A stretch of 64,000 bases of DNA from contig JAJGOT010000364.1 of NCBI GenBank assembly GCA_022457155.1, positions 1-64,000 on the forward strand, given 5' to 3'. Positions 3,501-63,264 of this stretch are shown here, piece after piece (the stretch's first letter is position 1; each line of letters opens with the position of its first letter). The stretch comes from Cladopsammia gracilis. Taxonomy: Eukaryota; Cnidaria; Anthozoa; Scleractinia; Dendrophylliidae. The notes under the pieces are model-generated. The model was not told the origin of the DNA and did no database searches. It saw only the letters and a program-made list of their open reading frames with translations. Made by a program: the position numbers and the translations under genes.

Positions 3501-6500
3501 GTAATTTCGCTATCGACTAGACTAGACTAAGCTAGACACGGAAGGCTTACAGTTGAACCTCCATGTGCAACCACCTCTCCCAAGCGACCACCTCTCCCAA
3601 GCGACCACCTCTCCCAATCAACCACCTCTCCCAAGCGCCCACCTCTCCTAAGCGACCACCTCTCATAAGCGACCACCTCTCCTAAGCGACCACCTCTCCT
3701 AAGCGACCACCTCTCCTAAGCGACCACCTCTCCTAAGCAACCACCTCTCATAAGCGACCACCTCTCATAAGCGACCACCTCTTCTAAGCGACCACCTCTC
3801 CTAAGCGACCACCTCTCCTTAGCGACCACCTCTCCCAAGCAACCACCTCTCATAAGCGACCAACTCTCCTAAGCGACCACCTCTCCTAAGCAACCACCTC
3901 TCCTAAACGACCACCTCTCCTAAGCAACCACCTCTCCTAAGCGACCACCTCTCCCAAGCAACCACCTCTTCCAAGCGACCACTTCTCATAAGCGACCAAC
4001 TCTCCTAAGCGACCACCTCTCCTAAGCAACCACCTCTCCTAAACGACCACCTCTCCTAAGCAACCACCTCTCCTAAGCGACCACCTCTCCCAAGCAACCA
4101 CCTCTTCCAAGCGACCACCTCTCATAAGCGACCAACTCTCCTAAGCGACCACCTCTCCTAAGCAACCACCTCTCCTAAACGACCACCTCTCCTAAGCAAC
4201 CACCTCTCCTAAGCGACCACTTTCCAAAATACCAAATGTCTTCCAGTCAAATCACTTTAATTGAAACCTTTGGTAAGTGACCGCGACCACTTTCAACGCT
4301 GGTGATTTTAATTTTTTATTATTTTGAACCTGTGGTAAGCGACCGCTCGCCCATACATCTATGCCACTGCAGACCCAAATTGGATTTTGTGTTACGGTAC
4401 AACTCCAATAAAGCGAAAATTTTGTCCCTTGCATCGAATATTCAATATGATACAATATTTTATGCTAATAGGTGCTTTGTATATCGAAATTACTACAGAT
4501 TCATATGATTCAAAGTTAAGATCCCTGTGGTGTGATAGGTTCCCTGTACATTGAAATTGCTTTAGATTCATATGATTCAAAGTTAAGATCCCTGTGGTGT
4601 GATAGGTTCCCTGTACATTCAAATTGCTTTAGGTTCATATGATTCAAAGTTAAGATCCCTGTGGTGTGATAGGTGCCCTGTACATTGAAGTTGCTTTAGG
4701 TTCATATGATTCAAAGTTAAGATCCCTGTGGTGTGATAGGTGCTCTGTACATTGAAGTTGCTTTAGGTTCATATGATTCAAAGTTAAGATCCCTGTGGTC
4801 TGACCCCTCGTAAGCGATCACTTTAGCTTTGTATTTCGGGTGGTCTCTTACGGCAGGTTCAACTGTATTAACCCAGTAGAACGTGCTTGATAGAACCAGC
4901 TGCGTGCCAAGTAAAAGCACTGGCTAAACGTTTTGTAGTGTGATGTGAAACAATAGATGTCAGCAAATGTGTGCGATGAATCGGCGTTTTTCCGTTAATT
5001 AATTTTGGTAACCTTGTAGGAGGCAAGAATTCGGCAGCGAAGAAAACCAACCAAGGAATGCTTTGGGCCAAGACAAAAGAGACAAGAAGAAAAAGAAGAA
5101 AAAACTACAACAGGTCTGTTGAAGGTTGCCTCCCTGATTCATTTGGCATGCCATCATGCAATGCTCCTGCTATAATCTGACCTCCGCATAGGAGGGTGAG
5201 AAGATTCGGGCACAAGACAACATAGAGGGAAATAGAAATCCCCGAACGCTCCACTGAATCTCTGCGACGGAGAAAGTCTGGAGCGGACGAAAATTTATGA
5301 GAGTTAAAACTCGATGGGATCACGTAATATTTAGAGGTCAAATGATAGCAAGAGTTCAAAATTTAAAAGCATTCACCTATAAATTCAAGCAGTTTTAAAC
5401 TCAACCAGAGCGCATGAGAATTGGTAGTCGCGATCGTAATCTCTCATCAAATCCCGTTTTGTGATCCCAGCTTAACTATGTTTAACACATAAACTGCCGC
5501 TGTTGTTGGTGTTAGTTTGTTTGTTTGATTAAATTTAATTTCACTTTGCTATGTAGATATCAAGCTTACCTGCTCAGTCTAAATTTCATCACTTGGAATC
5601 GCAAGGGTAAGGACACCTTTAGCTGTGCAAGTGCACTTCTTAGTCCATATGCATGTGAAGCGCTGGATCATACACATCAACTTATTCTTGCCTTACCATA
5701 CACTCCATACCAGTAGCTAGAACATATCCCAAGTAGAATTTTGTTAACGCCAGAATAACAATTGTGAAAACGCTTTTCAATGTTTTCTTTTAGTAACTTT
5801 TGCAGTACATTGAAAGCACGCCAACAATACAAGATTTTTGCACGTTTAAGAGTCGCCTTTTAACTTTCAGCAGCACTGTTCAATCAATCAATCAATCATA
5901 GACAGCCTTTCGGTCGTACACCATCTATGAGCTCCTTCCAACCGTTCCCATTCAACATCAGCGATCGGATATCTTCAAGTGATACCTGCCCTGTATCCGC
6001 CTTTAAGGTGTCTATGAATGTCGTTGTAGGCCCAGGGATTTCGTTTGAGGCCGGAGGCCGGACGAAACGTCCGGTCGTTTGACATGTAAAGTCCGGTACT
6101 TTCACACGAAATAACTATTTTCTCAAGTGTAAATTAATCGCCCAAGTCCGTTTGTTCCACCAATAAATCCGGTACTTTAAAATGTTACCGAAAACCCTGT
6201 GTAGGCCTTCTTCCTATTGATGTCTTTCCAATGTCCGACTTCTAGAGTATCGTTTATGAAGTCATTTCTTCGCTGTGCCTTAAGCAGTGACCAGCTTACT
6301 GCATTCTCAGTCTCCTTACCCTCTCAGATTCAGATTCCAAATTCGTAGTACACATCTTGGTTAGGTATCTTTTCTGACCAAGTTCCTTATTGCGATAAAT
6401 AAGAACAACAAACGGTTTGTTTCGTTTTATTTTCTCTGCAGTGAATTAAGCAAAATGGGAGAGTGGAGTCGAAGCCCGGAAATGCAGGTAAACGGTCATA

Positions 6501-46500: not shown

Positions 46501-49500
46501 GCCATTGCTACATGTATTCTGAGAAATAATTTTGCTAGTGGTGTGTTCACGAATTCTTTGACAGCTGGCATTCTTGAACATGACAGTTACATGATTGAAA
46601 GTTATTTTCTGAATTGGCTATGAAGTGCCTCTTCATATGAGCCCAGTTGACTGGCACGGGCTGGCCCAGTTACTAAGATCTTGCCTCACTCCTATCCAGA
46701 GATTCCAACCCTCCCGATTTGATCGGGAGTCTCCCGATTCGATGTCTTGCCTCCCACTCTCCCGATTTTTACCAAATTCTCCCGATTTATTATAAAATTC
46801 TAAAAACTAGGGGAAAATTGCTAATTTTTAGGATTTTTCTTGCGATCTGTTACTGCGAAACAAACATATTACACTTTCTTCTCAGATAATCAGGACGGGA
46901 TGATGTCAAAATGCAGGAAATGGCACTTGAAAGAACCTAAATTTGCAAAACCCCGGACCCCCTAGAAGCTCGCGCCTTCGGCGCTCAGGATGGCGCTAGT
47001 AATTACTCCCTATTTTCCATCACATGGGGTGGAATCTCTGCCTATCTCCTTTACAAAATTTTATATGTGTTCATATGAGAAGGCGGGTTGGCCCGGTTAC
47101 CAATATAGATCTCAGTTTGTCCAACTGGGATCTTGGATCAGGGCGCATAATCGAATAAATATGGTACTTCATCATCATCACTACAATCATTGTCATCGTC
47201 GGTGACGGTGGCATCATCGTCGTCGGTGGCGGCATCATCGTCATCATCACCAATTCTGTTGTGTCTGGATTATCCTCTTGAGATAGTTGAATATGAGTCA
47301 AAATACGCATCACTTTACCTTTTTTCTTCCCATGTAGTCCAGTCAATCTGTGGATTAAGTTCAAACTAATTGCAACAAAAGCTTTTTCAGCGAAATATGA
47401 AGCATCTAAATGACCTTTTTAACATATCAAAAGTTCCACAAGATTCCATGGTCGGAACACCTTGAAATTCGGAATCATTTATTTTTGCTTTTTTACCACA
47501 GGGTTCCCACGTATCGCACTATAGAAAAAACGGAATAAATTGAACAATTTAAAGTTTTTTCTTCGTGTAACTAAACCTAGAGGCGCTGAATTCGCTTGGA
47601 TTTCATTCAGGATACAATTAATGGCTACTATGTAGATTTTTAGTAGATAATTTTACTATTGTAGACTAACCACAGGGAGCCCAACCCACGAAATAATAAA
47701 ATACTGCAAAATTCTTACTGTTGTTTCATATTTACTGCTACTTTATACTTTATACTTTAGCCTTTTTATCATACAAGCATGGTTAACTTTATTCTCTTTA
47801 AATGTTGGATGTCCTGGATTCATTAAAGCTTCACGCTATTCGGCTAAATATTCATCAAAACTGGTCAAAGATTATACTTCAATAGTTTCTAATATAAATC
47901 CTCTTCATCGGTCAGATCAGACTCTGGTGCGTTTGTGCAGTTAACTCCTTTGCACCCGCTACATGCTGCAGAGCACTTCAAGTTGTTCTTCCGACAAGAG
48001 CATCTGTTGTTCCTGCAGTCACCCTTGCAGCCACAACGAATCATCTGCAGTATAGAGGCGTGTGCTGGAGGCAAACTGGTGCGCTCTGGGGTGAATTTTC
48101 CATTTTTCAGCTGCCAGCCCCATTCGAGAGGTGGCAAATCTATGCCTTTCCACTGTTGGACTTGGAGGAACACTCGCTGGCTGTGGTAACTGGCAGCAGC
48201 TGATGTTGGTGGAAGGTTCTCTGGCTGCAAAACAGCATTGCCCGTTGAAACTTTCTGGCAAAATCGCGAATAACATAGCATATTTAAGCTCTCATCTTTT
48301 CCGCCGCACAACAGACACACCAGTGCCCTTTCTCCTGCTGCAATCACGTCCTCTTTGCTAACAGCATTTGCATCCCCGGAGAACAATCTTGCCTGGTCTT
48401 TGAAATACGCACTTGCCTTGAACTTGTTCAGTCCGGTCGCCTTCTGATGAAAAGTGACAACATTTGGCCTTTGTCGAATAGTTGTGATTAATATTCTCTC
48501 TCCAAAATGTTCTTCTAGTTTTTTCTTCATGTATACTGAACTGTATGCTTGATCCTCTTCACCTTCAAGAAACTCCTCCATCTTTCCGACAAGGTCTTCA
48601 ATAGTGGGCTGTTCAACGTCGTTTTCCTCTAGAAATGCTATTACTTTAGAAAAAGCAGTGCTCTTCACCGCGTCTACAGGTCGTCCTTGGGTCTTAGCTT
48701 TCTTTGAGCTACTTTCTGCTCCAATGTTATGCTGTAAGGGAATATTTCTTCCTGTTCGGAAATTGCTGCTACATAGCTTGTGGTAGACAGCATCAGCTGC
48801 GTGAAGATCTCGAAGATATTCCAGACGACCCCGCACCGCTATCGCCCAATCGTCGTTCCGTTCCTTGCACAGTCTACCAATGGATTCTTGGAACTCTATT
48901 GTTCTCACGCTTATCATGACATCGAGCCCTTTTTTCTTGCCATCGTACTTTGCAGGCTGACCGCAAAATAAACAATACTCTGAAGAGCTGAAGGATAGGT
49001 GGGTTGAGCGCCGCCTGACTGCGCTTGCATTTTCCTCGCATTTCGTATCAGATGATTTCCCACGTGGTCTCAGCAGATCGAGCCGGCATTTCTTGTGAAC
49101 TTTTAGGCCAGGCTTTGCATTAACTGCAGGATTGATTTCATTAATTTTTAGGCATCCCTTCTCAGTTAGCTTGGAAAATAAGCTCTCATCCTTCCCCACG
49201 TTTTCACCACAGATGCAGCAGCGAGACAACTTCCAAACTTCAACTAAAAGTGACCGAACAAAGATGTGATTGAAATACTTATGCTTTAAATACATTATCA
49301 CTCAAAATTATGCATGGAAAAACACAGAAAAAGCTTAAACGAACTTACCTTCAGCAATTACATGCCCAATTAACAAAGAAAGAAGGAAAAACGTCATAAA
49401 AAGTAATAATATGCTGTTGAAATTACCATTCTTAGCTATCAAGCCAGTACCTCGTTCGATTGTGACAGGCGTTCCTCGCAGAAACGAGCAGTCCTGGATA

Positions 49501-52500: not shown

Positions 52501-52797
52501 ACGCTATCACGTACACAATCTCTTCCCAGTAACCTGGTGGAAATTTTTCATATGAGCACACGAAATAATTCGTCACGTTAACCGGCCGAGCCCCCTTATT
52601 TACTCTTACGTACGCGTTCACGTTTCCCGCGGGAATGATTTGAAAGCTTGATCATACTCACATGGTTTGAAAAGGTAATTCCATTTACCTCCAGGTAGTG
52701 TATAAGGGCGTAAAATTACAAACAAAGCGTCGATCGTACAAACAACGCTGGAAAACAAAAGCCAAAACGCGACCCAAGATGGAAGACTTCGCTGCAT
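43519..52797 (-). CDS. EXPERA-domain membrane protein, four exons, complete
   Basis: 169 residues from minus-strand exons 52662-52797, 46075-46144, 44525-44570 and 43519-43776. All have GT/AG junctions, and the phases (1, 2, 0) fit without a gap. Four hydrophobic segments span the protein. The first-segment signature is CTIDALFVILRP, followed by LPGGKW, then VDTRYKDLKDEFVIGQSWMN, and near the end IPNSIWIAVPFL. The length, segment spacing and closing N.(I/V)W...P motif fit the EXPERA domain shared by EBP, EBPL, TMEM97 and TM6SF proteins. These are ER or sterol-related four-helix proteins, and EBP is a sterol isomerase. Catalysis cannot be assumed here because the EBP active-site residues are not evident. 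The C-terminus NHRKKD is a possible dilysine-like ER signal. Intron 1 is 6.5 kb and full of transposons. A paralogous exon 1 lies at 63129 in the opposite direction. Confidence 0.85.
43842..44110. repeat. Tandem repeat, three units of 80-100 bp, with poly-C tracts
   Basis: AATATGAAACATCC starts at about 43842, 43922 and 44023. Each unit continues with CCTCCCCTCTCTTACGTTTT-like sequence and TTGCTTCACTGACCCC, and units differ mainly in poly-C length. Confidence 0.85.
44611..44837. repeat. Diverged copy 3 of the poly-G/poly-C repeat
   Basis: G run, then TTCTAGA-containing sequence, GGCGGCACATACCTGTATAG and GGGGGAGTAACCCCCC. The layout resembles the copies at 16846 and 27357 but identity is low. 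It lies in intron 2 of the EXPERA gene, directly upstream (minus strand) of exon 3. Confidence 0.5.
45766..45973. mobile_element. MITE with AACCCTTTAAGCCCTAA-type inverted ends
   Basis: Starts TTAACCCTTTAAGCCCTAAG and ends TTAGGGCTTTAAAGGGTTAA. About 208 bp, non-coding, in intron 2 of the EXPERA gene. Confidence 0.65.
46145..47335. other. Part of EXPERA intron 1; low-complexity repeats
   Basis: A cluster of CTCCCGATT repeats lies at 46695-46800 and a CATCATCATC/GTCGTCGGTGGCGGC trinucleotide stretch at 47168-47255. The minus-strand frame 46198-46581 has no recognisable protein. Nothing else supported. Confidence 0.45.
47336..50022. mobile_element. DNA transposon with about 200-bp inverted repeats carrying a CXC-domain gene
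   Basis: The left end (TAGTCCAGTCAATCTGTGG..., from about 47336) matches the complement of the right end (...GATTGACTGGACTA, to about 50022). Further shared blocks are TTCAAACTAATTGCAACAAAAGC, AAAAGTTCCACAA and TACCACAGGGT, giving imperfect terminal inverted repeats of about 200 bp. ATG borders both sides, a possible 3-bp target duplication. One spliced gene lies between the ends on the minus strand. Superfamily not assigned. Confidence 0.65.
47889..49397 (-). CDS. Transposon-encoded protein with N-terminal zinc motifs and C-terminal CXC domain
   Basis: 467 residues from exons 49349-49397 and 47889-49243 (minus). The donor (GAAG/GTAAGT) and acceptor (TTTTAG) are strong and join in phase 1. 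The start is uncertain; the ATG at 49397 gives a short hydrophobic N-terminus (MTFFLLSLLIGHVIAE). Two Cys/His pairs follow: CCICGEN...HKKC and CLFCGQP...YHKLC. A charged middle leads to LPPTSAAASYH, a WGW motif, and a Tesmin/TSO1-like CXC cluster (RCGCKGDCRNNRCSCRKNNL) ending CSGCKGVNC. I recall long uncharacterised proteins in cnidarian and arthropod genomes with the same start and end. This copy lacks any visible DDE catalytic centre, so it may be internally shortened or an accessory DNA-binding protein. The frame is intact across both exons. Confidence 0.7.
50078..51051. mobile_element. MULE-like transposon (974 bp) with 9-bp target duplication
   Basis: Termini TAGCCTGTTCCAGGCGTTCA and complement, with inverted repeats of about 115 bp that include AAGCGAGCGAAAAAAA-like sequence. 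The 9-bp direct repeat TAGCTTATT flanks it (50069-50077 and 51052-51060). This is diagnostic of Mutator-like elements. The interior carries a minus-strand frame starting close to the right terminal repeat but no transposase. Located in EXPERA intron 1. Confidence 0.8.
50512..50835 (-). pseudogene. Helicase-like N-terminal fragment inside the MULE-like element
   Basis: A 107-residue frame starts with ATG just inside the right terminal repeat. The early segment NVLKDFPNIVSLREEQKDCL resembles the start of RecQ-type helicase domains (F....LR.EQ...). The Walker A motif expected shortly after is absent, and the remaining sequence (SSPHNFFAIASLIRATPSEF...) has no match I recall. Best read as a truncated captured or self-encoded gene. 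Family assignment is tentative. Confidence 0.4.
51300..52661. other. Rest of EXPERA intron 1, low-complexity and repeat fragments
   Basis: GATGATGATG-type triplets at 51325-51400, two poly-C tracts near 51935-51967, and three GTGGGGCATTTGAC repeats with an inverted GTCAAATGCCC at 52302-52412, followed by about 18 G residues. Nothing coding. Confidence 0.5.
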
Positions 52798-52855
52798 CGT
52801 GAACTTGTGGGGTACCTTGACCAATCTCGCACTGCATCATGGGTCAGGATTTGTG

Positions 52856-52926
52856 GCGCGCGCGGTAGGTACGTGGTGTATGGGGACACATAGTGTACCG
52901 ACACTGGTCATTCAGTCCTTATACAG
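52856..52926 (-). promoter_or_regulatory. Conserved promoter-proximal flank of EXPERA copy 1
   Basis: 71 bp running from the satellite edge to a GCGCGCGC tract, starting about 59 bp upstream of the ATG at 52797. It matches 62970-63040 with only about two differences. It contains GGTACACTATGTGTCCCC and CCACGTACCTACC. Promoter function is inferred from position and conservation. Confidence 0.45.
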
Positions 52927-55142
52927 CTACATACAATCATATACAACCATATACCACCATATACTACCATATACAACCATATACAACCCTATTCAACCAT
53001 ATACAGCCCTATGCAGCCCTATACAGGCATATACAACCATATACCGCCATATACAACCATATAAAGCCATATACAACCATATACAACCATATACAACCAT
53101 ATACAACCATACACAGCCATATACCGCCATATACAGCCATATACAACCATATACAGCCCTATTCAACCATATACCGCCATATACAGCCATATACAGCCAT
53201 ATACAGCCCTATTCAACCATATACAGCCATATACAGCCCTATACAGCCTTATACAGACATATACAACCATATACAACCATATACAGCCATATACAGCCAT
53301 ATACAACCATATACAGCCATATACAACCATATACAGCCATATACCGCCATATACAGCCATATACAACCATATACAGCCCTATTCAACCATATACAGCCAT
53401 ATACAGGCCTATACAGCCTTAGACAGCCATATACAACCATATACAACCATATACACCCATATACAGCCATATACAGCCATATACAGCCATATACAACCAT
53501 ATACAGCCGTATACAGCCATATACAACCATATACAGCCCTATTCAACCATATACAGCCATATACCGCCATATACAGCCATATACAGCCCTATACAGCCTT
53601 ATACAGCCATATACAACCATATACAACCATATACAGCCATATACAGCCATATACAGTCATATACAGCCATATACAACCATATCCAACCATATACAGCCAT
53701 ATACAGCCATATACAACCATATACAACCATATACAGCCCTATGCAGCCCTATACAGGCATATACAGCCATATACAACCATATACAGCCATATACAACCAT
53801 ATACAGCCATATACAGCCATATACAGCCATATACAGCCATATACAGCCATATACAGCCATATACAGCCATATACAACCATATACAGCCCTATTCAACCAT
53901 ATACAGCCATAACCGCCATATACAGCCATATACAGCCCTATACAGCCATATACAGCCATATACAACCATATACAACCATATACAGCCATATACAGCCATA
54001 TACAGCCATATACAGTCATATACAGCCATATACAACCATATCCAACCATACACAGCCATATACAGCCATATACAACCATATACAACCATATACAGCCCTA
54101 TGCAGCCCTATACAGGCATATACAGCCATATACAACCATATACAGCCATATACAACCATATACAGCCGTATACAGCCATATACAACCATATACAGCCCTA
54201 TTCAACCATATACAGCCATAACCGCCATATACAGCCATATACAGCCCTATACAGCCTTATACAGCCATATACAACCATATACAACCATATACAGCCATAT
54301 ACAACCATATACAACCATATACAGCCATATACAGCCATATACAGCCATATACAGTCATATACAGCCATATACAACCATATCCAACCATATACAGCCATAT
54401 ACAGCCATATACAACCATATACAACCCTATACAGCCCTATGCAGCCCTATACAGGCATATACAGCCATATACAACCATATACAGCCATATACAACCATAT
54501 ACAGCCATATACCGCCATATACAGCCATATACAACCATATACAGCCCTATTCAACCATATACAGCCATATACCGCCATTTACAGCCATATACAGCCCTAT
54601 ACAGCCTTATACAGCCATATACAACCATATACAACCATATACAGCCATATACAGCCATATACAGTCATATACAGCCATATACAGCCATATACAACCATAT
54701 CCAACCATATACAGCCATATACAGCCATATACAACCATATACAACCATATACAGCCATATACAGCCATATACAACCATATACAGCCATATACAGCCATAT
54801 ACAACCATATACAAACATCTACCACCATATACAACCATATACAACCATATACAGCTATATACAGCCATATACAACCATATACAGCCATATACAGCCATAT
54901 ACAGCCATATACAACCATATACAACGATATACAGCCATATACAGCCATATACAGCCATGTATACCATATACAACCATATACAGCCATATACAGCCATATA
55001 CAGCCATATACAACCATATACAACGATATACAGCCATATACAGCCATATACAGCCATGTATACCATATACAACCATATACCGCCATATACAACCATATAC
55101 AGCCGTATACAGCCATATACAGCCATATACAACCATATACAA
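52918..55142. repeat. 10-bp satellite, left array, ATACARCCAT
   Basis: About 220 decamers, mostly ATACAGCCAT and ATACAACCAT, with rarer variants (ATACCGCCAT, ATTCAACCAT, ATACAGCCCT, ATGCAGCCCT). A variant string (CCCTATGCAGCCCTATACAG) recurs near 53731, 54091 and 54431, a higher-order period of about 340-360 bp. The array has few stops in any frame, so it gives long meaningless reading frames on both strands. Confidence 0.97.
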
Positions 55143-55269
55143 ACTTGTCTGCTTCCAATTTATTATTATAACAGATTAATTTCTTTTTTTTACAAATTCC
55201 CACCATTCATTATAAAAAAATCATCTATTTCTTTCGTAAGTTTTAGTGGTATTAATTCATCATCTTTTT

Positions 55270-56330
55270 TTTTTATTCTCTTAATGCTAAAGTGTTAATT
55301 TTATTTTTACAAATTAATCTTTTATCATCATTTGCAGATAATGCCACTTTAATCATTTTCATTGAGTAAATTTCATGATCTTTACTCCTAATTATATTCA
55401 TTGATCTCATTTCTTCTTTCTCAGTAAATAAACACTTCTTATAATCATCAAATGTATTCTCTTTTTTAATCACATTTTTTTATTCCTTTACACTTCTTTT
55501 CTTCTTTCATCATTCCATTTCCATCATGACCAATAATAAAAGAATAAAGTTTAGGTCTATTAGTCCAACAAAATGTGTAATTTGTTTACCACAAGCTTTA
55601 TCCTTAAACATTCCAATCACTTTCTTATTCACACCAATTTTTATACCAGACTTGTTTTTCTGGATAATCTGATGTATCCGAGGCAAACTTTTTTTAATAT
55701 CTTTCTTTATATCCTTATAAAAATCATCTGTTTTAAGGTTACAGAGTACCTTCAGATCGAAAATGTATTGAAATTTTTTTTGACATCAAGGTAAAGTTTA
55801 CAGAATGAACTTTTATCCAAAAAAAATTATCGAAAAATAGTGAAAATTGACGGAGAAATGACGGTAAAACCGTTTGTGGGCGGAGTTTGTTTATGAAGCG
55901 ATATATTTTTTTTAAGCGCTGTTTTCTCAAAGTTAATTTTTCGCTTGTTGGGGACACTTTAAAGAGCTACAACTCAAATGGCATTTGTTCGATTTTCCTC
56001 AAATTTGGACAGAAGCTAGGCTAACATATAATCAATAAAAATGTGTCGGCGAATTTCGTAATTCCGAAAACTTTTTCGTCAAGAGTCATTTCCGTGCGAT
56101 CATTCCAATTTTTTTCTCCCTTTTTTGAAAATATTCTGTAACTTTTCACTGCAATTGAATATGGGAAATCGCCGATACCTTTTTTAGCGCTTCGTGTCCA
56201 GAAACGTACCCGAAGGTACACTGAACCTTAATTTCATACATTAATGAATCTGTATCAGTAAATAATAATTCAGGTTTATTACCATGTTTATCTCTAATAT
56301 AATTAAGGAAAAAACACCACAAATTAAAGA
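55270..56330 (-). pseudogene. Second, partial copy of the PolB 3' end (left palindrome arm)
   Basis: On the minus strand the polymerase motif C region (LLFTDTDSLMYEIK, about 56225-56270) is followed by the TTAA-flanked insertion and then by the C-terminal part, including [15 protein letters not shown] (55273-55473). That 66-residue segment differs from the right-arm copy by a single residue. The N-terminal two thirds of the polymerase are absent here. Upstream of about 56310 the similarity to the right arm stops. Confidence 0.85.
55737..56227. mobile_element. TTAA-flanked MITE in the left-arm polymerase remnant
   Basis: 491 bp bordered by TTAA (55733-55736 and 56228-56231). The ends are GGTTACAGAGTACCTTCAG and the complement of GGTTCAGTGTACCTTCGGG. 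The TTAA target is typical of piggyBac and Kolobok classes. It is the same insertion as at 59202-59887 but about 195 bp shorter. Confidence 0.75.
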
Positions 56331-56395
56331 TTTTCTTAGAAATCATAGAAATATTAAAGTCAGAATGATAATGATTTGTTTAATGGAACAAGATG

Positions 56396-59300
56396 AATAT
56401 TAAATGAAACGATTACAACACAAGATAAAGCTTATTTTCATTCTGAAACATATATTAATCTTGAAGGTACTGATGTTAAGGAAATTTTATTTAAGATGAT
56501 TTATGAAATTCTTCATAAGATTTTAATTTATCAAAGAAATGGTTCAGGTTGGTATTTTGAAGAGGTTTTATCATTAGAAATACATACTGTTGATTACAAA
56601 CCTTTGAAAGGATCATCATACATTCCAAATCCTGATTTTATATCAAAAAAGAAAGCAATAATTAAAAGAAATAAAGATCAAAAGTGTTTTATGTGGTCAA
56701 TATTGAGATACTTACATCCGGTGAAAGAAAATCCAGATAGATTAACTGACCTTAAACAATATGGGAATGGAAATGACGTGACTGGGAATGAACTCAATTT
56801 TAAAGATATAGATTTTCCAGTAAAATTAAAAGATATTGATAAGTTTGAAAAACAAAACCCAAATCTTCCACGAATTAATGTGTTTTCAATTAATGAATAT
56901 TATAAATTTTATCCATTAAGAATGAATAAATTAGATTGTCAAAACACAATTGATTTATTTTTGTCTGAAAAAAGATGGAAAATCACATTATTCACTTATT
57001 AATAATTTTTCAAGATTTATTAGTTCTCAAGTGAGTAAAGATACTACAAGAAAAAAAATATTACTGTAAAACATGTTTATCACATTATACAAAGAAAGAA
57101 TTATTTGATAAACATATTACTTATTGCTGCGCTAATGAAACAGTTGCTGTTAAAATGCAACCTAAAAACTCATCAATTTATTTCAGAAATAATTACAAGA
57201 AATTGTCTATTCCATTTGTAGCTTATGCTGATTTGAATGTTTCACAAAACCGATGAAGAACTGTGAACAAAATTCAGAAAATAGTTTCACAATGGAATAC
57301 CAAAAACATGAACCTTGTGGATTCTGTCTTTATTTTAAACCATTAGATAATATAAAATTACAAATACATCCAAATCCACTAATTTATACTAAAGAAGGTG
57401 ATGAGGATATAGCAAAAATCTTTTGTAAAAAGTTAGAATTCATAACTAAATAAATTCAATTTAGAAAATTCTTTATAAATATCTCAAAAAGATGATTTTT
57501 AGAGATGAAAATAGATGAGATTTTAATAATTCATCTGTTTGTTATATATGTGAAAAACCTTTTGAGAAAAATGATAGGAAGGTTAGAGATCATTGTCATT
57601 TCTCTGGTGAATATAGAGGAGCTGCACATAATAGTTGCATTCGTAATTGTAAAAAACCTTTATTTCTTCCAGTAATATTTCATAATCTTCAAGGATATGA
57701 TGCACATCTTTTTATCAAACAACTTTTAAAGATTGAAGGAGAATTATCATGTATTCCATCAACAGAAGAAAGATATATTTCTTTTTCTAAGAAATTAAAG
57801 TTGATGAGTATACATTAAAAAAAGACTGGAGAGAAAGTATCATTAAACTTTGAAATTCGTTTTATTGATAGTTTTAAATTTATGCAAACTTCATTAGCAA
57901 AACTTGTTTCAAATCTTAAACCAGCAGATTTTCACCCTACAAAAAAGATTTTCAATAACTTCAATCTCTTAACAAGAAAAGGAGTTTATCCATATGATTA
58001 TGTAACTTCAATTGAAAAATTCAATGAAACACAATTACCTCCAAAATCAGAGTTTTATTCAAAACTAAATAATGAAGACATTTCAGATGAAGATTAGGAA
58101 CATGCTAAAAAAGTATGGAAAGAATTTAATTGTAAAACTATTCAAGATTATCATGATTTATATTTAAAGTCTGATGTATTAGTTCTTGCAGATGTTTTTG
58201 AAAACTTTCGTAAAACTTGTTTAAAACATTATAAATTAGACCCAGCACATTATTTTACACCACCTAGTTTAGCTTGGGATGCATGTCTTAAAGAAACAAA
58301 TCAGAATCTTCAACTAATACGTGATTATGATATGTTAATGATGATTGAAATGGGAATAAGAGGAGGAATTACTCATATTACAAAAAGATATTCAGAAGCG
58401 AATAATAAATATATGGAAAACTATAATCCTAAAGGGAAATCAAAATTCATTTCTTATTTAGATGCTAATAATCTTTACGGTTGGGCAATGTGTCAAAAAT
58501 TGTCAACTCATGGATTCAATTGGATGAGAGATGAACAACTAACAAATAAAGAAGTAATTAAACTTCTAGAAAAGAGAATTACAAATCATGGTTATCTTGA
58601 ATATCCAAAAAATTTATGGAATGAACATAATGATTATCCACTTGCTCCCGAAAAATTAAAGTTTGAAAAGTTTGAAAAACTTGTTGGAACTTTTTATCCA
58701 AAATATCATTATGTACTACATTATAAAAATCTTAGACAATATCTTGAACTCGGAATGATTCCTAAAAAAGGTACATGGAGGAATATCATTTTATCAATCA
58801 GAATGGATGAAACCATATATTAATAAAAATACGGAATTAAGAAAACAATCACAGAATAGTTTTGAAAAAGATTTTTTGAAATGAATGAATAATTCAGTTT
58901 TTGGTAAAACAATTGAAAACATTAGAAAAATTGATAGATAATAAAGAATAAGCAACAAATTAATAATATTACCATCAAAATCAAATTTTGATAGATCAAC
59001 AATATTTCATCCTCATTTGATTACAGTTCATATGAAAAAGACAGAAGTATATTTTAGCAAACCAATTTATGCAGGTCAAGCTATTTTTGTTTTATCAAAA
59101 ACTCATATGTATGATTTTCATTATAATTATATTAGAAATAAATATGGCAATAAAGCTGAATTATTATTTACTGATACAGATTCATTAATGTATGAAATTA
59201 AGGTTACAGTGTACCTTCGGGGGTGTCTCGAGTATAACAGTTCTAGCGTCTTAAGATTACACTTAATATACCTAAACCCAGATATCAAATTAAAGGTTAT

Positions 59301-60352
59301 AGAGCTGGCTATCTAAATATGGAAACCATTTGGTAATAAAATGAATTGTCGAATTTTTTACGACGTCTAAATTCGAACGTCCGAATCAGCTTTAAAATGC
59401 TATAACTCAAAGCGATTATTGTATTTTGCTAATTTGATTTGTTCTCGTGTTTCCGGACACGAAGCGCTAAAAAAAGGTATCGGCGATTTCCCATATTCAA
59501 TTGAAAAGTTACAGAATATTTTCGAAAAAGGGAGAAAAAAATTGGAATGATCGCACGGAAATGACTCTTGACGAAAACGTTTTCGGAATTACGAAATTCG
59601 CCGACACATTTTTATTGATTATATGTTAGCCTAGCTTCTGTCCAAATTTGAGGAAAATCGAACAAATTCCCTTTGAGTTGTAGCTCTTAACTTTGAGAAA
59701 ACAGCGCTTAAAAAAACATATCGCTTCATAATCAAACTCCGCCCACAAAAGTTATACTGTCATTCCTCCGTCAATTTTCACTATTTTTCGATAATTTGTT
59801 TTTTGGATGAAAGTTCATTCTGTAAACTTTATTTTGACGTCAAAAAAAATTTTCAATAAATTTTCGATCTGAAGGTACTCTGTAACCTTAAAACAGATGA
59901 TTTTTATAAGGATATAAAGAAAAATATTAAAAAAAGTTTGCCTCGGATACATCAGATTATCCAGAAAAACAAGTCTGGTATAAAAATTTGGTGTGAATAA
60001 GAAAGTGATTGGAATGTTTAAGGATAAAGCTTGTGGTAAACAAATTACACATTTTGTTGGACTAATAGACCTAAACTTTATTCTTTTATTATTGGTCATG
60101 ATGGAAATGGAATGATGAAAGAAGAAAAGAAGTGTAAAGGAATAAAAAAATGTGATTAAAAAAGAGAATACATTTGATGATTATAAGAAGTGTTTATTTA
60201 CTGAGAAAGAAGAAATGAGATCAATGAATATAATTAGGAGTAAAGATCATGAAATTTACTCAATGAAAATGAATAAAGTGGCATTATCTGCAAATGATGA
60301 TAAAAGATTAATTTGTAAAAATAAAATTAACACTTTAGCATTAAGAGAATAA
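56396..60352 (+). pseudogene. Decayed family B DNA polymerase of protein-primed (Polinton/Maverick-like) type
   Basis: Successive plus-strand frames give one degenerate polymerase. They include an N-terminal region (CFMWSILRYLHPV, 56690), an exonuclease-I region reading YADLNV where homologues usually have YADFE, an RDHCHF...HNSC zinc/endonuclease-VII-like motif (57583-57640), and exonuclease II (HNLQGYDAH, 57682). Polymerase motif A is YLDANNLYGWAM (58454), motif B NNSVFGKTIENIRK (about 58887) and motif C FTDTDSLMYEI (59167). The C-terminal segment is ALSANDDKR (about 60280). Several stops and frameshifts and a 686-bp insertion right after motif C show it is dead. The type is that of self-synthesising transposons and linear plasmids. 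The other usual Polinton genes (integrase, packaging ATPase, protease, capsid) were not seen. The region is distinctly AT-rich compared with its flanks. Confidence 0.9.
59202..59887. mobile_element. TTAA-flanked MITE in the central/right-arm polymerase
   Basis: 686 bp bordered by TTAA (59198-59201 and 59888-59891), ends GGTTACAGTGTACCTTCGGG and CTGAAGGTACTCTGTAACC. It interrupts the polymerase exactly between the codons for MYEIK and those for TDDFYKDI. Removing it in thought restores continuity at that point, which shows it is an insertion. The twin is at 55737. Confidence 0.8.
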
Positions 60353-60606
60353 AAAAAAGATGTATGCAGAAGAAGAGATTGAATTATATACTTCAAGATT
60401 GAAAAAATATAAGAACCAACTGAAAATGGCAATCAAAGTGACAACCAAAGTAACAAAAAAGAAACTGAAATTTGTGAAAAGAAAGAGATTGAAAATAATA
60501 TAGAATTTTGTTGTGATTGTGGATTACAAATACGGAAAATATTGAATCATGTTGACTCATATGATTGGGAAAGATGTTGTTATGGAAAAAGATCAGTATA
60601 TCATAG

Positions 60607-60909
60607 AAAGTATCATTTTCAGAAAAAATTGATGAAGTACAAAAAAAGATTGATCCGACTAATTCTGATATTTCAAAGATTAATGAAATACTTTTTAAAA
60701 ATGATAATGATAGAATCATCAAGAAAGTAAACAAAAAATATAAAAGAAAAAGAATTATTAATGTTATCTTTATTATAAAAAAGATATCAGTTATTCAAGG
60801 TTATGAAAATGTTGATGAATTAATACCACTAAAACTTACGAAAGAAATAGAAGATTTTTTTTATAATGAATGGTGGGAATTTGTAAAAAAAGAAATTAAT
60901 CTGTTATAA
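60607..60909 (+). pseudogene. Unidentified open frame downstream of PolB
   Basis: About 100 codons open to TAA at 60907, Lys/Ile/Asn-rich, with RKRIINVIFIIKKI and a hydrophobic-acidic end (EIEDFFYNEWWEFVKK). An overlapping frame upstream (about 60480-60640) has CCDCG and VYHRKYHFQKKL, suggesting a frameshifted protein with a zinc ribbon. The pattern (zinc ribbon, Y.R..HF, terminal helix) is vaguely like VLTF3-type late transcription factors found with such polymerases in some mobile elements, but I cannot confirm this. Its last codons are also present in the left arm; the rest was deleted there. Confidence 0.4.
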
Positions 60910-60930
60910 TAATAAATTGGAAGCAGACAA

Positions 60931-62985
60931 GGTTGTATATGGTTGTATATGGCTGTATATGGCTGTATATGGTTGTATATGGTGGTATATGGTTGTATAT
61001 GGCGGTATATGGTTGTATATGGCGGTATATGGTTGTATATGGCGGTATATGGTTGTATATGCCTATATATGGTTGTATATGGTTGTATATGGTTGTATAT
61101 AGCTGTATATGGCTGTATATGGCTTTTTATGGTTGTATATAGCTGTATATGGCTGTATATAGGTGTATATGGCTGTATATGGCTGTATATGGTTGTATAT
61201 AGTTGTATATTGCTGTATATGGCTGTATATGGCTGTATATGGTTGTATATGGCTGTATATATCTGTATATAGCTGTATATGGCTGTATATGGTTGTATAT
61301 AGTTGTATATGGCTGTATATGGCTGTATATGGCTGTATATGGTTGTATATGGCTGTATATATCTGTATATAGAGCGTATGCACATGACGTCACGGCGGCC
61401 ATATTGGTGTACCAAAACAATAGAACGGCGGCCATGTTGGTGTACCAAAACAATCCTGTGGGATTTGAACGCTTTTCTTATGTTAACACTTTCTTTTGTT
61501 CCAATAAATTTGCATAGCTGCTTGCCACGTGAGTGCATACGCTCTATAGCTGTATATGGCTGTATATGGTTGTATATGGTGGTAGATGTTTGTATATGGT
61601 TGTATATGGCTGTATATGGCTGTATATGGTTGTATATGGCTGTATATGGCTGTATATGGTTGTATATGGTTGTATATGGCTGTATATGGCTGTATATGGT
61701 TGGATATGGTTGGATATGGTTGCATATGGCTGTATATGGCTGTATATGGCTGTATATGGCTGTATATGGTTGTATATGGTTGTATAGGGCTGTATGTGGC
61801 TGTATATGGTTGAATAGGGCTGTATATGGCTGTATATGACTGTATATGGCGGTATATGGCTGTATATGGTTGTATATGGTTGTATATGGCTGTATAAGGC
61901 TGTATAGGGCTGTATATGGCTGTATATGGTTGAATAAGGCTGTATAGGGCTGTATATGGCTGTATATGGTTGAATAGGGCTGTATATGGCTGTATATGGC
62001 TGTATATGGCGGTATATGGCTGTATATGGTTGTATATGGTGGTAGATGGTTGTATATGGTTGTATATGGCTGTATATGGCGGTATATGGTTGTATATGGC
62101 TGTATATGGCTGTATATGGTTGAATAGGGCTGTATATGGTTGTATATGGCTGTATATGGCGGTATATGGCTGTGTATGGTTGTATATGGTTGTATATGGT
62201 TGTATATGGTTGGATATGGCTGTATAAGGCCGTATAGGGCTGTATATGGCTGTATATGGCGGTATATGGCTGTATATGGTTGAATAGGGCTGTATATGGT
62301 TGTATATGGCTGTATATGGCGGTATATGGCTGTATATGGCTGTATATGGCTGTATACTGCTGTATATGGTTGTATATGGTTGTATATGGCTGTATATGGC
62401 TGTATATGGTTGTATAGGGCTGTCTAAGGCTGTATAGGGCCGTATATGGCGGTATATGGCTGTATATGGTTGTATACGGCTGTATATGGCGGTATATGGC
62501 TGTATATGGTTGTATATGGCTGTATATGGTTGTATATGGCTGTATATGGCTGTATATGGCTGTATATGGTTGTATATGGCTGTATAAGGCTGCATAGGGC
62601 TGTATATGGCTGTATATGGTTGAATAGGGCTGTATATGGCTGTATATGGCTGTAAATGGTGGTAGATGGTTGTATATGGTTGTATATGGCTGTATATGGC
62701 TGTATATGGTTGTATATGGCTGTATATGGCTGTATATGGTTGAATAGGGCTGTATATGGTTGTATATGGCTGTATATGGCGGTATATGGCTGTATATGGT
62801 TGTATATGGTTGTATATGGTTGTATATGGCTTTATATGGTTGTATATGGCGGTATATGGTTGTATATGCCTGTATAGGGCTGCATAGGGCTGTATATGGT
62901 TGAATAGGGTTGTATATGGTTGTATATGGTAGTATATGGTGGTATATGGTTGTATATGATTGTATGTAGCTGTATAAGGGCTGAA
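60931..62985. repeat. 10-bp satellite, right array, inverted orientation (ATGGYTGTAT)
   Basis: About 188 decamers in reverse orientation to the left array, split at 61371-61545 by a short insertion. The outermost 200 bp carry the same unusual variants in mirrored order as the left array (GTATGTAGC, TATGATTG, TAGTATATGG, GGTGGTATATGG), so the arms share ancestry unit by unit. The innermost 440 bp are richer in the TATAGCTG variant. Confidence 0.97.
61371..61545. mobile_element. 175-bp MITE inserted in the right satellite array
   Basis: Ends AGAGCGTATGCAC and GTGCATACGCTCT are inverted repeats, bordered by TA-rich satellite. Inside, GCGGCCATRTTGGTGTACCA followed by AAACAAT occurs twice in tandem. 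It is absent from the left array, so it is younger than the arms or was removed from the left arm. Confidence 0.7.
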
Positions 62986-63040
62986 TGACTAGTGTCGGTA
63001 CACTATGTGTCCCCATACACCACGTACCTACCGCGCGCGC
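62970..63040 (+). promoter_or_regulatory. Conserved promoter-proximal flank of EXPERA copy 2
   Basis: Mirror of 52856-52926: about two mismatches in 71 bp, ending in GCGCGCGC. Beyond that tract the two sides diverge and need gaps, although short shared stretches (CTGACCCATRATGCAGTGCG, CACGATGCAG) persist up to the ATG. A promoter role is inferred. Confidence 0.45.
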
Positions 63041-63128
63041 GATGGAAGACGCTGACCCATAATGCAGTGCGAAGTAATGTGAGTAAACATCTTGCCTCAC
63101 GAATCCCTCAAGAGACGACTCCCTCACG

Positions 63129-63264
63129 ATGCAGAGAAATCTTCCATCTTGGATTGCATTTTGGCTCCTTTTAACGGCCATAGTCTGTACCATGGATGCT
63201 TTGTTTATACTTTTGCGACCTCATACATTACCTGGTGGAAAATGGAACTACCTTTTCAAACCAT
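63129..63264 (+). CDS. EXPERA-domain protein paralogue, exon 1 (rest outside window)
   Basis: The first 45 codons plus one base, ending at a strong donor (CCAT/GTAAGT), phase 1 exactly as in the complete minus-strand gene. The protein reads MQRNLPSWIAFWLL then CTMDALFILLRPHTLPGGKW, with 9 of 45 residues different from the paralogue and about 28 of 136 bases different. It retains an intact start, splice site and membrane segment, so it looks functional. It is transcribed away from the satellite/polymerase block, head to head with the copy at 52797. Exon 2, expected to start with a YNIYIQVD-like segment, was not found before the window ends. Confidence 0.8.

What the first reader, a model, noticed from the sequence alone, without database searches (positions are those of the whole stretch)
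52662..63264. Divergent EXPERA paralogues separated by a palindromic satellite/DNA-polymerase unit
Seen directly: exon 1 of two related genes, each pointing outward; between them two inverted arms of a 10-bp satellite and, at the centre, a decayed protein-primed-type PolB whose 3' end is duplicated in both arms. I know of no described element or gene locus with this layout. It could be a mobile element with very long satellite-containing terminal repeats that landed in a bidirectional promoter, or a host inverted duplication that captured half of an older PolB element.
Basis: partly seen in the sequence, partly recalled or inferred. Interest (0 to 1): 0.9.

Follow-up and report, generated by a model that had tools for sequence, protein, structure and literature searches.

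The report
Foldback transposon carrying dead polymerase gene
A 10-kb jumping element, ended by mirror-image arms of a 10-base repeat and carrying a broken viral-type DNA polymerase gene as a passenger, has landed in the short gap between two back-to-back related genes; it is a new family of a known kind of transposon.

Summary
The layout is real. It is a mobile element of 10,169 bp (52864-63032) flanked by an 8-bp target duplication, GCGCGCGC, inserted between the start codons of two divergent EXPERA-type paralogues (about 154 bp apart without it). Its 40-bp end has 35 hits in the genome (reversed control 0). Seven of seven end-pairs examined have perfect, different 8-bp duplications at other sites. 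Five further long copies carry the layout, one of them shortened. A 2.7-kb copy is only two inverted decamer arms, so the polymerase is not needed in cis. The polymerase was dead before the family spread: one frameshift is shared by 6 of 6 copies. Its relatives elsewhere in the genome lack the satellite (7 of 7 read, of 23 listed), so it was captured. I call it a non-autonomous foldback-type DNA transposon moved in trans by a transposase not identified: MULE and P-like hits lie near no terminus, and one KDZ hit of 39 lies 15 kb inside one, inconclusive. The class is known (FB, Tetris, Tm1); a captured polymerase whose end became part of the inverted repeat is the new feature.

The parts
52662..52797 (-). 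Exon 1 of the left EXPERA-type paralogue (host gene; start codon at 52797)
   Evidence: 78% identical to right exon 1 over 46 aa; a downstream exon at 43522-43800 hits PF05241 at E 0.014, below cut-off
52856..52863 (.). Left 8-bp target site duplication GCGCGCGC
52864..52903 (+). Left terminal inverted repeat (outermost 40 bp, GGTAGGTACGTGG...)
   Evidence: 35 hits with up to 3 mismatches in the genome, 0 in the reversed control
52920..55141 (+). Left decamer satellite arm, about 222 units of TATACAGCCA/TATACAACCA
55144..56305 (-). Inner domain of the left arm: inverted second copy of the polymerase 3' end, lacking the counterpart of 60359-60805
55737..56227. TTAA-flanked insertion (GGTTACAG...), shortened copy in the left arm; boundaries read
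56306..59123 (+). Middle domain: single-copy 5' and central part of the broken PolB gene
57519..57818 (+). Endonuclease VII-like domain of the PolB reading frame
   Evidence: PF02945 E 9.4e-5, just under the cut-off; phrog_423 E 1.6e-6
59124..60931 (+). Inner domain of the right arm: polymerase 3' end; stop codon at 60907-60909
59202..59887 (.). TTAA-flanked insertion in the polymerase just after its DTDS motif (motif name recalled)
60934..62976 (-). Right decamer satellite arm
61373..61545 (.). Short insertion inside the right satellite arm with inverted ends (by eye); a secondary insertion, not part of the element
62993..63032 (-). Right terminal inverted repeat (40 bp, identical to the left)
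63033..63040 (.). Right 8-bp target site duplication GCGCGCGC
63129..63264 (+). Exon 1 of the right EXPERA-type paralogue (host gene)
   Evidence: a downstream exon in L045 3256-3531 hits PF05241 at E 0.017, below cut-off

Best explanation
It is a non-autonomous foldback-type DNA transposon. A transposase supplied in trans (inferred) recognises the 40-bp termini and probably the phased decamer units of the arms (inferred), moves the segment, and leaves an 8-bp target duplication (shown). The polymerase gene is a passenger. An ancestral copy of this transposon picked up part of a PolB mobile element, which by the time of spread was disrupted by a TTAA-flanked insertion and a frameshift; the polymerase 3' end was included in the inverted repeat of both arms, and the whole unit spread recently (order inferred from shared lesions). 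At this locus it inserted at an alternating GC tract in the roughly 154-bp gap between two divergent EXPERA-type genes.
For: Termini are multi-copy: 35 hits of the 40-bp end and 91 of its outer 24 bp, each with up to 3 mismatches, 0 in reversed controls. 7 of 7 end-pairs examined carry perfect, mutually different 8-bp target duplications. Five further long copies at other loci carry the layout, C964 with one arm shortened and the 5' part of the polymerase missing. A 2.7-kb copy on C579 with target duplication ATCAAAAG consists of inverted satellite arms only. A frameshift at residues 481-486 of relative P0013 is shared by 6 of 6 polymerase copies, and the TTAA-flanked insertion is present in at least one arm of 6 of 6: by its end motif in both arms of the window, C737, C313 and C894 and in one arm of C1011b and C964; the second C1011b arm matches the window through it and the second C964 arm is too short to hold it. 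Inner arm blocks of 12 arms from 7 copies are 96.9-99.8% identical, and the two arms of one copy are generally no closer to each other than to other copies, so arms were paired before the spread. Of 40 listed places of the polymerase 3' end (216 candidates), 17 at 95-100% reach the satellite junction and 23 at 79-89% end before it; 7 of these 23 were read and none has the satellite.
Against: No transposase was found inside any copy; only some of the open frames were scanned. 21 of the 35 terminal hits lie outside the seven pairs, so many ends are single or their mates have diverged. 7 of 30 termini read have no period-10 array just inside. Of seven loci with variant or single ends fetched, two have perfect 8-bp duplications (L052, L055), two match at 6 of 8 (L051, L053), two show none (L049, L050), and L054 has no mate in the 4 kb held (by eye). 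That the decamers are transposase binding sites is inference.
Confidence: 0.87

Rival explanations
1. Self-synthesising transposon: the polymerase was the element's own replication engine, as in Polintons, and the family descends from a protein-primed replicon with satellite-bearing ends.
For: The polymerase lies in the same place in all six long copies read and its 3' end is part of the arms.
Against: The polymerase was dead before amplification; an arms-only copy exists with its own target duplication; seven free-standing relatives read lack the satellite, and five of them share other downstream sequence instead; the duplications are 8 bp, whereas Polintons leave 6 bp (recalled). No integrase or capsid domain came up among the pieces scanned with Pfam, but only part of the open frames was scanned.
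Confidence: 0.05
2. Host inverted duplication: a palindromic duplication of the locus gave two EXPERA-type genes and the mirror-image arms.
For: The flanking exons are themselves an inverted pair (74% over 294 aligned columns, which include the element's outer end), and the empty site is more palindromic than 500 of 500 shuffles.
Against: Six other end-pairs lie at other sites with their own 8-bp duplications and no excess palindromicity (6 of 6 unremarkable). The flanking pair is far more diverged than the arms inside (91-96%), so the two inversions have different ages.
Confidence: 0.03
3. Assembly artefact joining unrelated repeats.
For: Long mirror-image satellite arms are hard to assemble.
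Against: Seven independent pairs with perfect target duplications are not expected from misjoins. The number of decamers per arm could still be wrong.
Confidence: 0.02

Closest known systems
Tm1 Mutator/Foldback family of root-knot nematodes (PMC3169594; abstract and passages seen)
   Same: Composite inverted repeats made mostly of a short tandem unit (13-15 bp) of variable number, unique outer motifs, other sequence (a histone hairpin, a gene called Cg-1) inside the element, target duplications without consensus, mostly MITE-like members.
   Different: Target duplications mostly 9 bp; asymmetric end motifs; a Phantom-like Mutator transposase was found there, none here; the passenger is not a polymerase.
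Tetris foldback transposon of Drosophila virilis (PMC4079207; abstract and passages seen)
   Same: Long inverted repeats with outer tandem-repeat domain and inner domain, variable middle domain, no transposase found, 8-10 bp duplications, shares ends with a MITE.
   Different: Repeat unit about 220 bp; the middle has no apparent coding capacity.
FB elements of Drosophila, TU elements of sea urchin, Galileo (details recalled; foldbacks of Drosophila and sea urchin are named in passages of PMC4079207, Galileo in a search listing)
   Same: Long inverted repeats with tandem units; TU is recalled to leave 8-bp duplications.
   Different: Not compared here by sequence.
Zisupton / KDZ transposons (PMC12730594; abstract and passages seen)
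   Same: 8-bp target duplications.
   Different: No KDZ gene found in any copy; the one KDZ hit near a terminus is inconclusive.
Polintons and polinton-like viruses (search listing only; features recalled)
   Same: A protein-primed family B polymerase.
   Different: 8-bp rather than 6-bp duplications; polymerase dead and dispensable in cis.
Coral CMITE elements (PMC2872659; abstract and part 1 of 4 of the text seen)
   Same: Non-autonomous inverted-repeat elements of corals related to piggyBac; the TTAA-flanked insertion nested in our arms looks of that general kind (not tested).
   Different: Not the element itself: its duplications are 8 bp, not TTAA; the CMITE core sequence was not searched for here.

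Membership tests
Foldback-type DNA transposon (structural class) | Long terminal inverted repeats containing arrays of short tandem units of variable number | tested here: met
Foldback-type DNA transposon (structural class) | Constant short target site duplication at unrelated loci | tested here: met
   8 bp in 7 of 7 pairs
Foldback-type DNA transposon (structural class) | Middle domain variable or absent between copies | tested here: met
   six long copies with the polymerase, one arms-only copy
Mutator (MULE), home of most foldback elements | 8-10 bp target duplication and a MULE transposase sharing the termini | tested here: inconclusive
   8-bp duplications fit; 0 of 36 MULE hits lie within 20 kb of any of the 91 terminal hits, compared by eye
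KDZ / Zisupton | 8-bp duplication and a KDZ transposase sharing the termini | tested here: inconclusive
   1 of 39 KDZ hits lies 15 kb inside a terminus (C260), but no mate end was found in the 30 kb read
P superfamily | P-type transposase sharing the termini | tested here: inconclusive
   0 of 32 PF21787 hits within 20 kb of a terminus, by eye; absence near these ends does not exclude an autonomous copy elsewhere. That PF21787 stands for P-type transposases is recalled
hAT | 8-bp duplication and hAT transposase sharing the termini | tested here: inconclusive
   150 of 890 candidates scored; one hit about 11 kb from a terminus but on its outer side (C583, by eye)
Merlin | Merlin-type transposase sharing the termini | not tested
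   the search did not complete
Polinton / self-synthesising element | Functional protein-primed polymerase | tested here: not met
   polymerase broken in 6 of 6 copies and absent from an arms-only copy
DNA_pol_B_2 (PolB) gene family | Sequence relatedness to PF03175 proteins | tested here: met
   about 70% identity in the best hits, some relatives carrying PF03175; the broken pieces scanned do not themselves hit PF03175

The most novel reading that the evidence does not exclude
The foldback family is driven by a KDZ/Zisupton-type (or undescribed) transposase, and in an ancestor the protein-primed polymerase and the satellite ends worked together: a transposon that replicated its own long hairpin-prone arms, with the polymerase's C-terminal coding end built into both inverted repeats.
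Probability: 0.06. Interest if true: 0.75.

Novelty: new variant of a known kind. Interest (0 to 1): 0.4.

Why it matters
It shows the coding end of a viral-type DNA polymerase turned into part of the inverted repeat of an unrelated transposon, an example, with its steps in readable order, of how foldback elements lengthen their arms and pick up passengers. It supplies a family with clean ends and 8-bp duplications with which to look for the missing transposase, and explains a set of dispersed 10-bp satellite arrays as transposon arms. At this locus it separates a head-to-head gene pair by 10 kb, a natural test of a shared promoter.

Tried and rejected
Palindromic target preference: suggested by the window's GCGCGCGC and its inverted surroundings, but 6 of 6 other empty sites are no more palindromic than shuffles. 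A second core (FEN/CXC-like open frames, names recalled; Pfam found nothing convincing) in the C1226 copy at first looked like an alternative passenger; it is more likely an independent nested element with its own inverted ends inserted in a satellite arm, since a polymerase end with satellite lies upstream. CMITE coral elements as the family: set aside because the target duplication differs. Viral contigs: 8 stretches matched a pattern, none confirmed as a relative of the polymerase piece. PDB: no sequence match for that piece. Transposase hunt: Pfam on ten open frames of L041-L043 and on four frames from inserts of two long copies gave an endonuclease/reverse-transcriptase domain (E 9.7e-6, below cut-off), a GIY-YIG domain and weak hits only; frames of L046-L048 and L053-L055 were looked at by eye alone. 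C1066 816728(+) and 856432(-) as a 40-kb element: their 8-bp flanks differ. Literature: no coral foldback transposon and no polymerase-bearing foldback element appears in the listings (the top 10-20 titles and abstract starts each; one search had a single result) of six searches; this is not proof of absence, as most subscription journals and Repbase are not held.
Full report
OBSERVATION. The window carries two inverted arrays of a 10-bp unit (52920-55141 and 60934-62976) that are 91% complementary over the outer 1,056 bp. Between them lies a broken family B polymerase frame, whose 3' end occurs in both arms (55144-56305 and 59124-60931, 94-96%). Left and right first exons of two EXPERA-type genes point outward (78% identical over 46 aa); later exons of both genes give PF05241 at E 0.014 and 0.017, below the curated cut-off, and resemble each other at 39%.

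BOUNDARIES. The element is 52864-63032 (10,169 bp). It begins GGTAGGTACGTGG and ends with the complement, and is flanked on both sides by GCGCGCGC. Without the element and one duplication the two start codons (52797 and 63129) would be about 154 bp apart (read).

IT IS MOBILE. The 86-bp end has 40 scored matches (48 candidates) in the 878-Mb genome. The 40-bp end with up to 3 mismatches has 35 hits, 0 in the reversed control; the outer 24 bp have 91, again 0 in the control. Seven convergent pairs were examined and 7 of 7 have perfect, different 8-bp duplications: GCGCGCGC, CGGACTTT, CTAGTTTT, CTCACCGC, CGGAAAGT, CAAGGTCC, ATCAAAAG. The other 21 of the 35 hits lie outside these pairs. Of 30 termini read, 23 carry a period-10 array just inside the end and 7 do not. 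Short relatives with variant ends exist; of seven further loci fetched, L052 (about 0.4 kb) and L055 (about 0.5 kb) have perfect 8-bp duplications, L051 and L053 match at 6 of 8, L049 and L050 show none, and L054 has no mate in the 4 kb held (read by eye).

THE POLYMERASE IS A PASSENGER. Six long copies (window, C737, C313, C1011 at 669 kb, C964, C894) have this layout, at 92-98% BLAST identity to the window over the larger blocks; C964 has a shortened second arm, lacks the 5' part of the polymerase and carries a large insertion, C737 carries further inserted sequence, and C313 a deletion in one arm. In all six the polymerase is broken. Against the related protein P0013 all six change frame at residues 481-486. 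A TTAA-flanked insertion beginning GGTTACAG sits at the same place in the polymerase part of the arms: by motif in both arms of four copies (window, C737, C313, C894) and in one arm of C1011b and C964; the second C1011b arm matches the window through that region, the second C964 arm is too short to hold it. The predicted relatives P0013 and P0004 continue in one frame where the copies shift. A seventh paired copy, C579, 2.7 kb, is nothing but two inverted satellite arms, yet has its own duplication. So the polymerase is neither functional in these copies nor needed in cis.

WHERE IT CAME FROM. The polymerase piece has thousands of relatives in public data: 7,808 of 8,000 scored candidates, some with PF03175 or PF02945, and 4 of the 120 listed named Porites. 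In this genome the 126 bp at its 3' end has 40 listed places of 216 candidates: 17 at 95-100% reach the satellite junction, 23 at 79-89% stop at or near the stop codon. Of these 23, seven were read: none enters the satellite in the stretch printed, and five share homologous sequence downstream of the polymerase, an open frame by eye. Two of the 17 read as controls (L063, L064) do enter the satellite. The junction therefore lies about 25 bp past the polymerase stop codon.

ORDER OF EVENTS (inferred). Polymerase element; TTAA insertion and frameshift; capture beside the satellite end; inclusion of the polymerase end in both arms; spread. The relative order of the first lesions and the capture is not resolved. 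Twelve arm blocks from seven copies are 96.9-99.8% identical (gaps ignored) and their substitutions are nearly all private. The two arms of one copy are generally no closer to each other than to arms of other copies, with C894 a partial exception, so the inverted pairing predates the spread. Two shared indels and one substitution split the copies into two groups (window, C737, C1011b and C313, whose second, partial arm lacks those columns, versus C894, C964, C232).

MECHANISM. Shown: insertion with 8-bp duplication, conserved 40-bp ends, arms sufficient in cis (one copy). Inferred: a transposase in trans, and phased 10-bp units (about one helical turn) as binding sites. MULE, P-like, hAT and KDZ domains were sought. 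MULE 0 of 36 and P-like 0 of 32 lie within 20 kb of any terminal hit. Of 150 scored hAT hits (890 candidates) one lies about 11 kb from a terminus on its outer side. Of 39 KDZ hits one, on C260, lies about 15 kb inside a terminus, but no mate end was found in 30 kb. By my arithmetic 91 termini with 20 kb inside each cover 0.2% of the genome, so about 0.08 KDZ hits and about 0.5 hits over the four families are expected by chance; the superfamily stays open.

KNOWN RELATIVES. The anatomy is that of foldback transposons: Tm1 has arms of a 13-15 bp unit and mostly 9-bp duplications (PMC3169594, passages); Tetris has arms with about 220-bp units and 8-10 bp duplications, and no transposase was found for it either (PMC4079207, passages). 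Zisupton leaves 8-bp duplications (PMC12730594, passages). None of the papers in the listings of six searches is, by title and abstract start, about a polymerase-bearing foldback element, with the limits of that library.

VERDICT. A non-autonomous foldback-type transposon family, recently spread, with a captured, dead polymerase, one copy of which sits in a head-to-head gene pair. New variant of a known kind; moderate interest.

Noticed in passing
window 47892-49301 (-): A 470-aa open frame with a cysteine-rich C-terminal stretch resembling a TSO1-type CXC motif (recalled); no Pfam hit at E 0.1.
   Followed up: no
window 61373-61545 and L016: A roughly 170-bp insertion with inverted ends inside the right satellite arm; part of the same sequence lies next to a terminus on C126.
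   Followed up: partly
L041 527-8391 (C1226): A 7.9-kb element with its own inverted ends and CXC/FEN-like broken frames (recalled names) nested in a satellite arm of what is probably another polymerase-bearing copy.
   Followed up: partly
L031 8167-8655 (-): A GIY-YIG domain (PF01541, E 6.1e-5) in an insertion within the C737 copy.
   Followed up: no
L056, L058, L060, L061, L062: Free-standing relatives of the polymerase are followed by a shared downstream stretch that looks like a second open frame; their host element is undescribed here.
   Followed up: partly
L065 (C260), 464533-464889 and 468674-469177 of the contig: A KDZ-type transposase piece and, by eye, a cysteine-rich domain, about 11-15 kb inside a terminal repeat of this family.
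   Followed up: partly
window 3570-4220: A 17-bp tandem repeat of 38 units.
   Followed up: no
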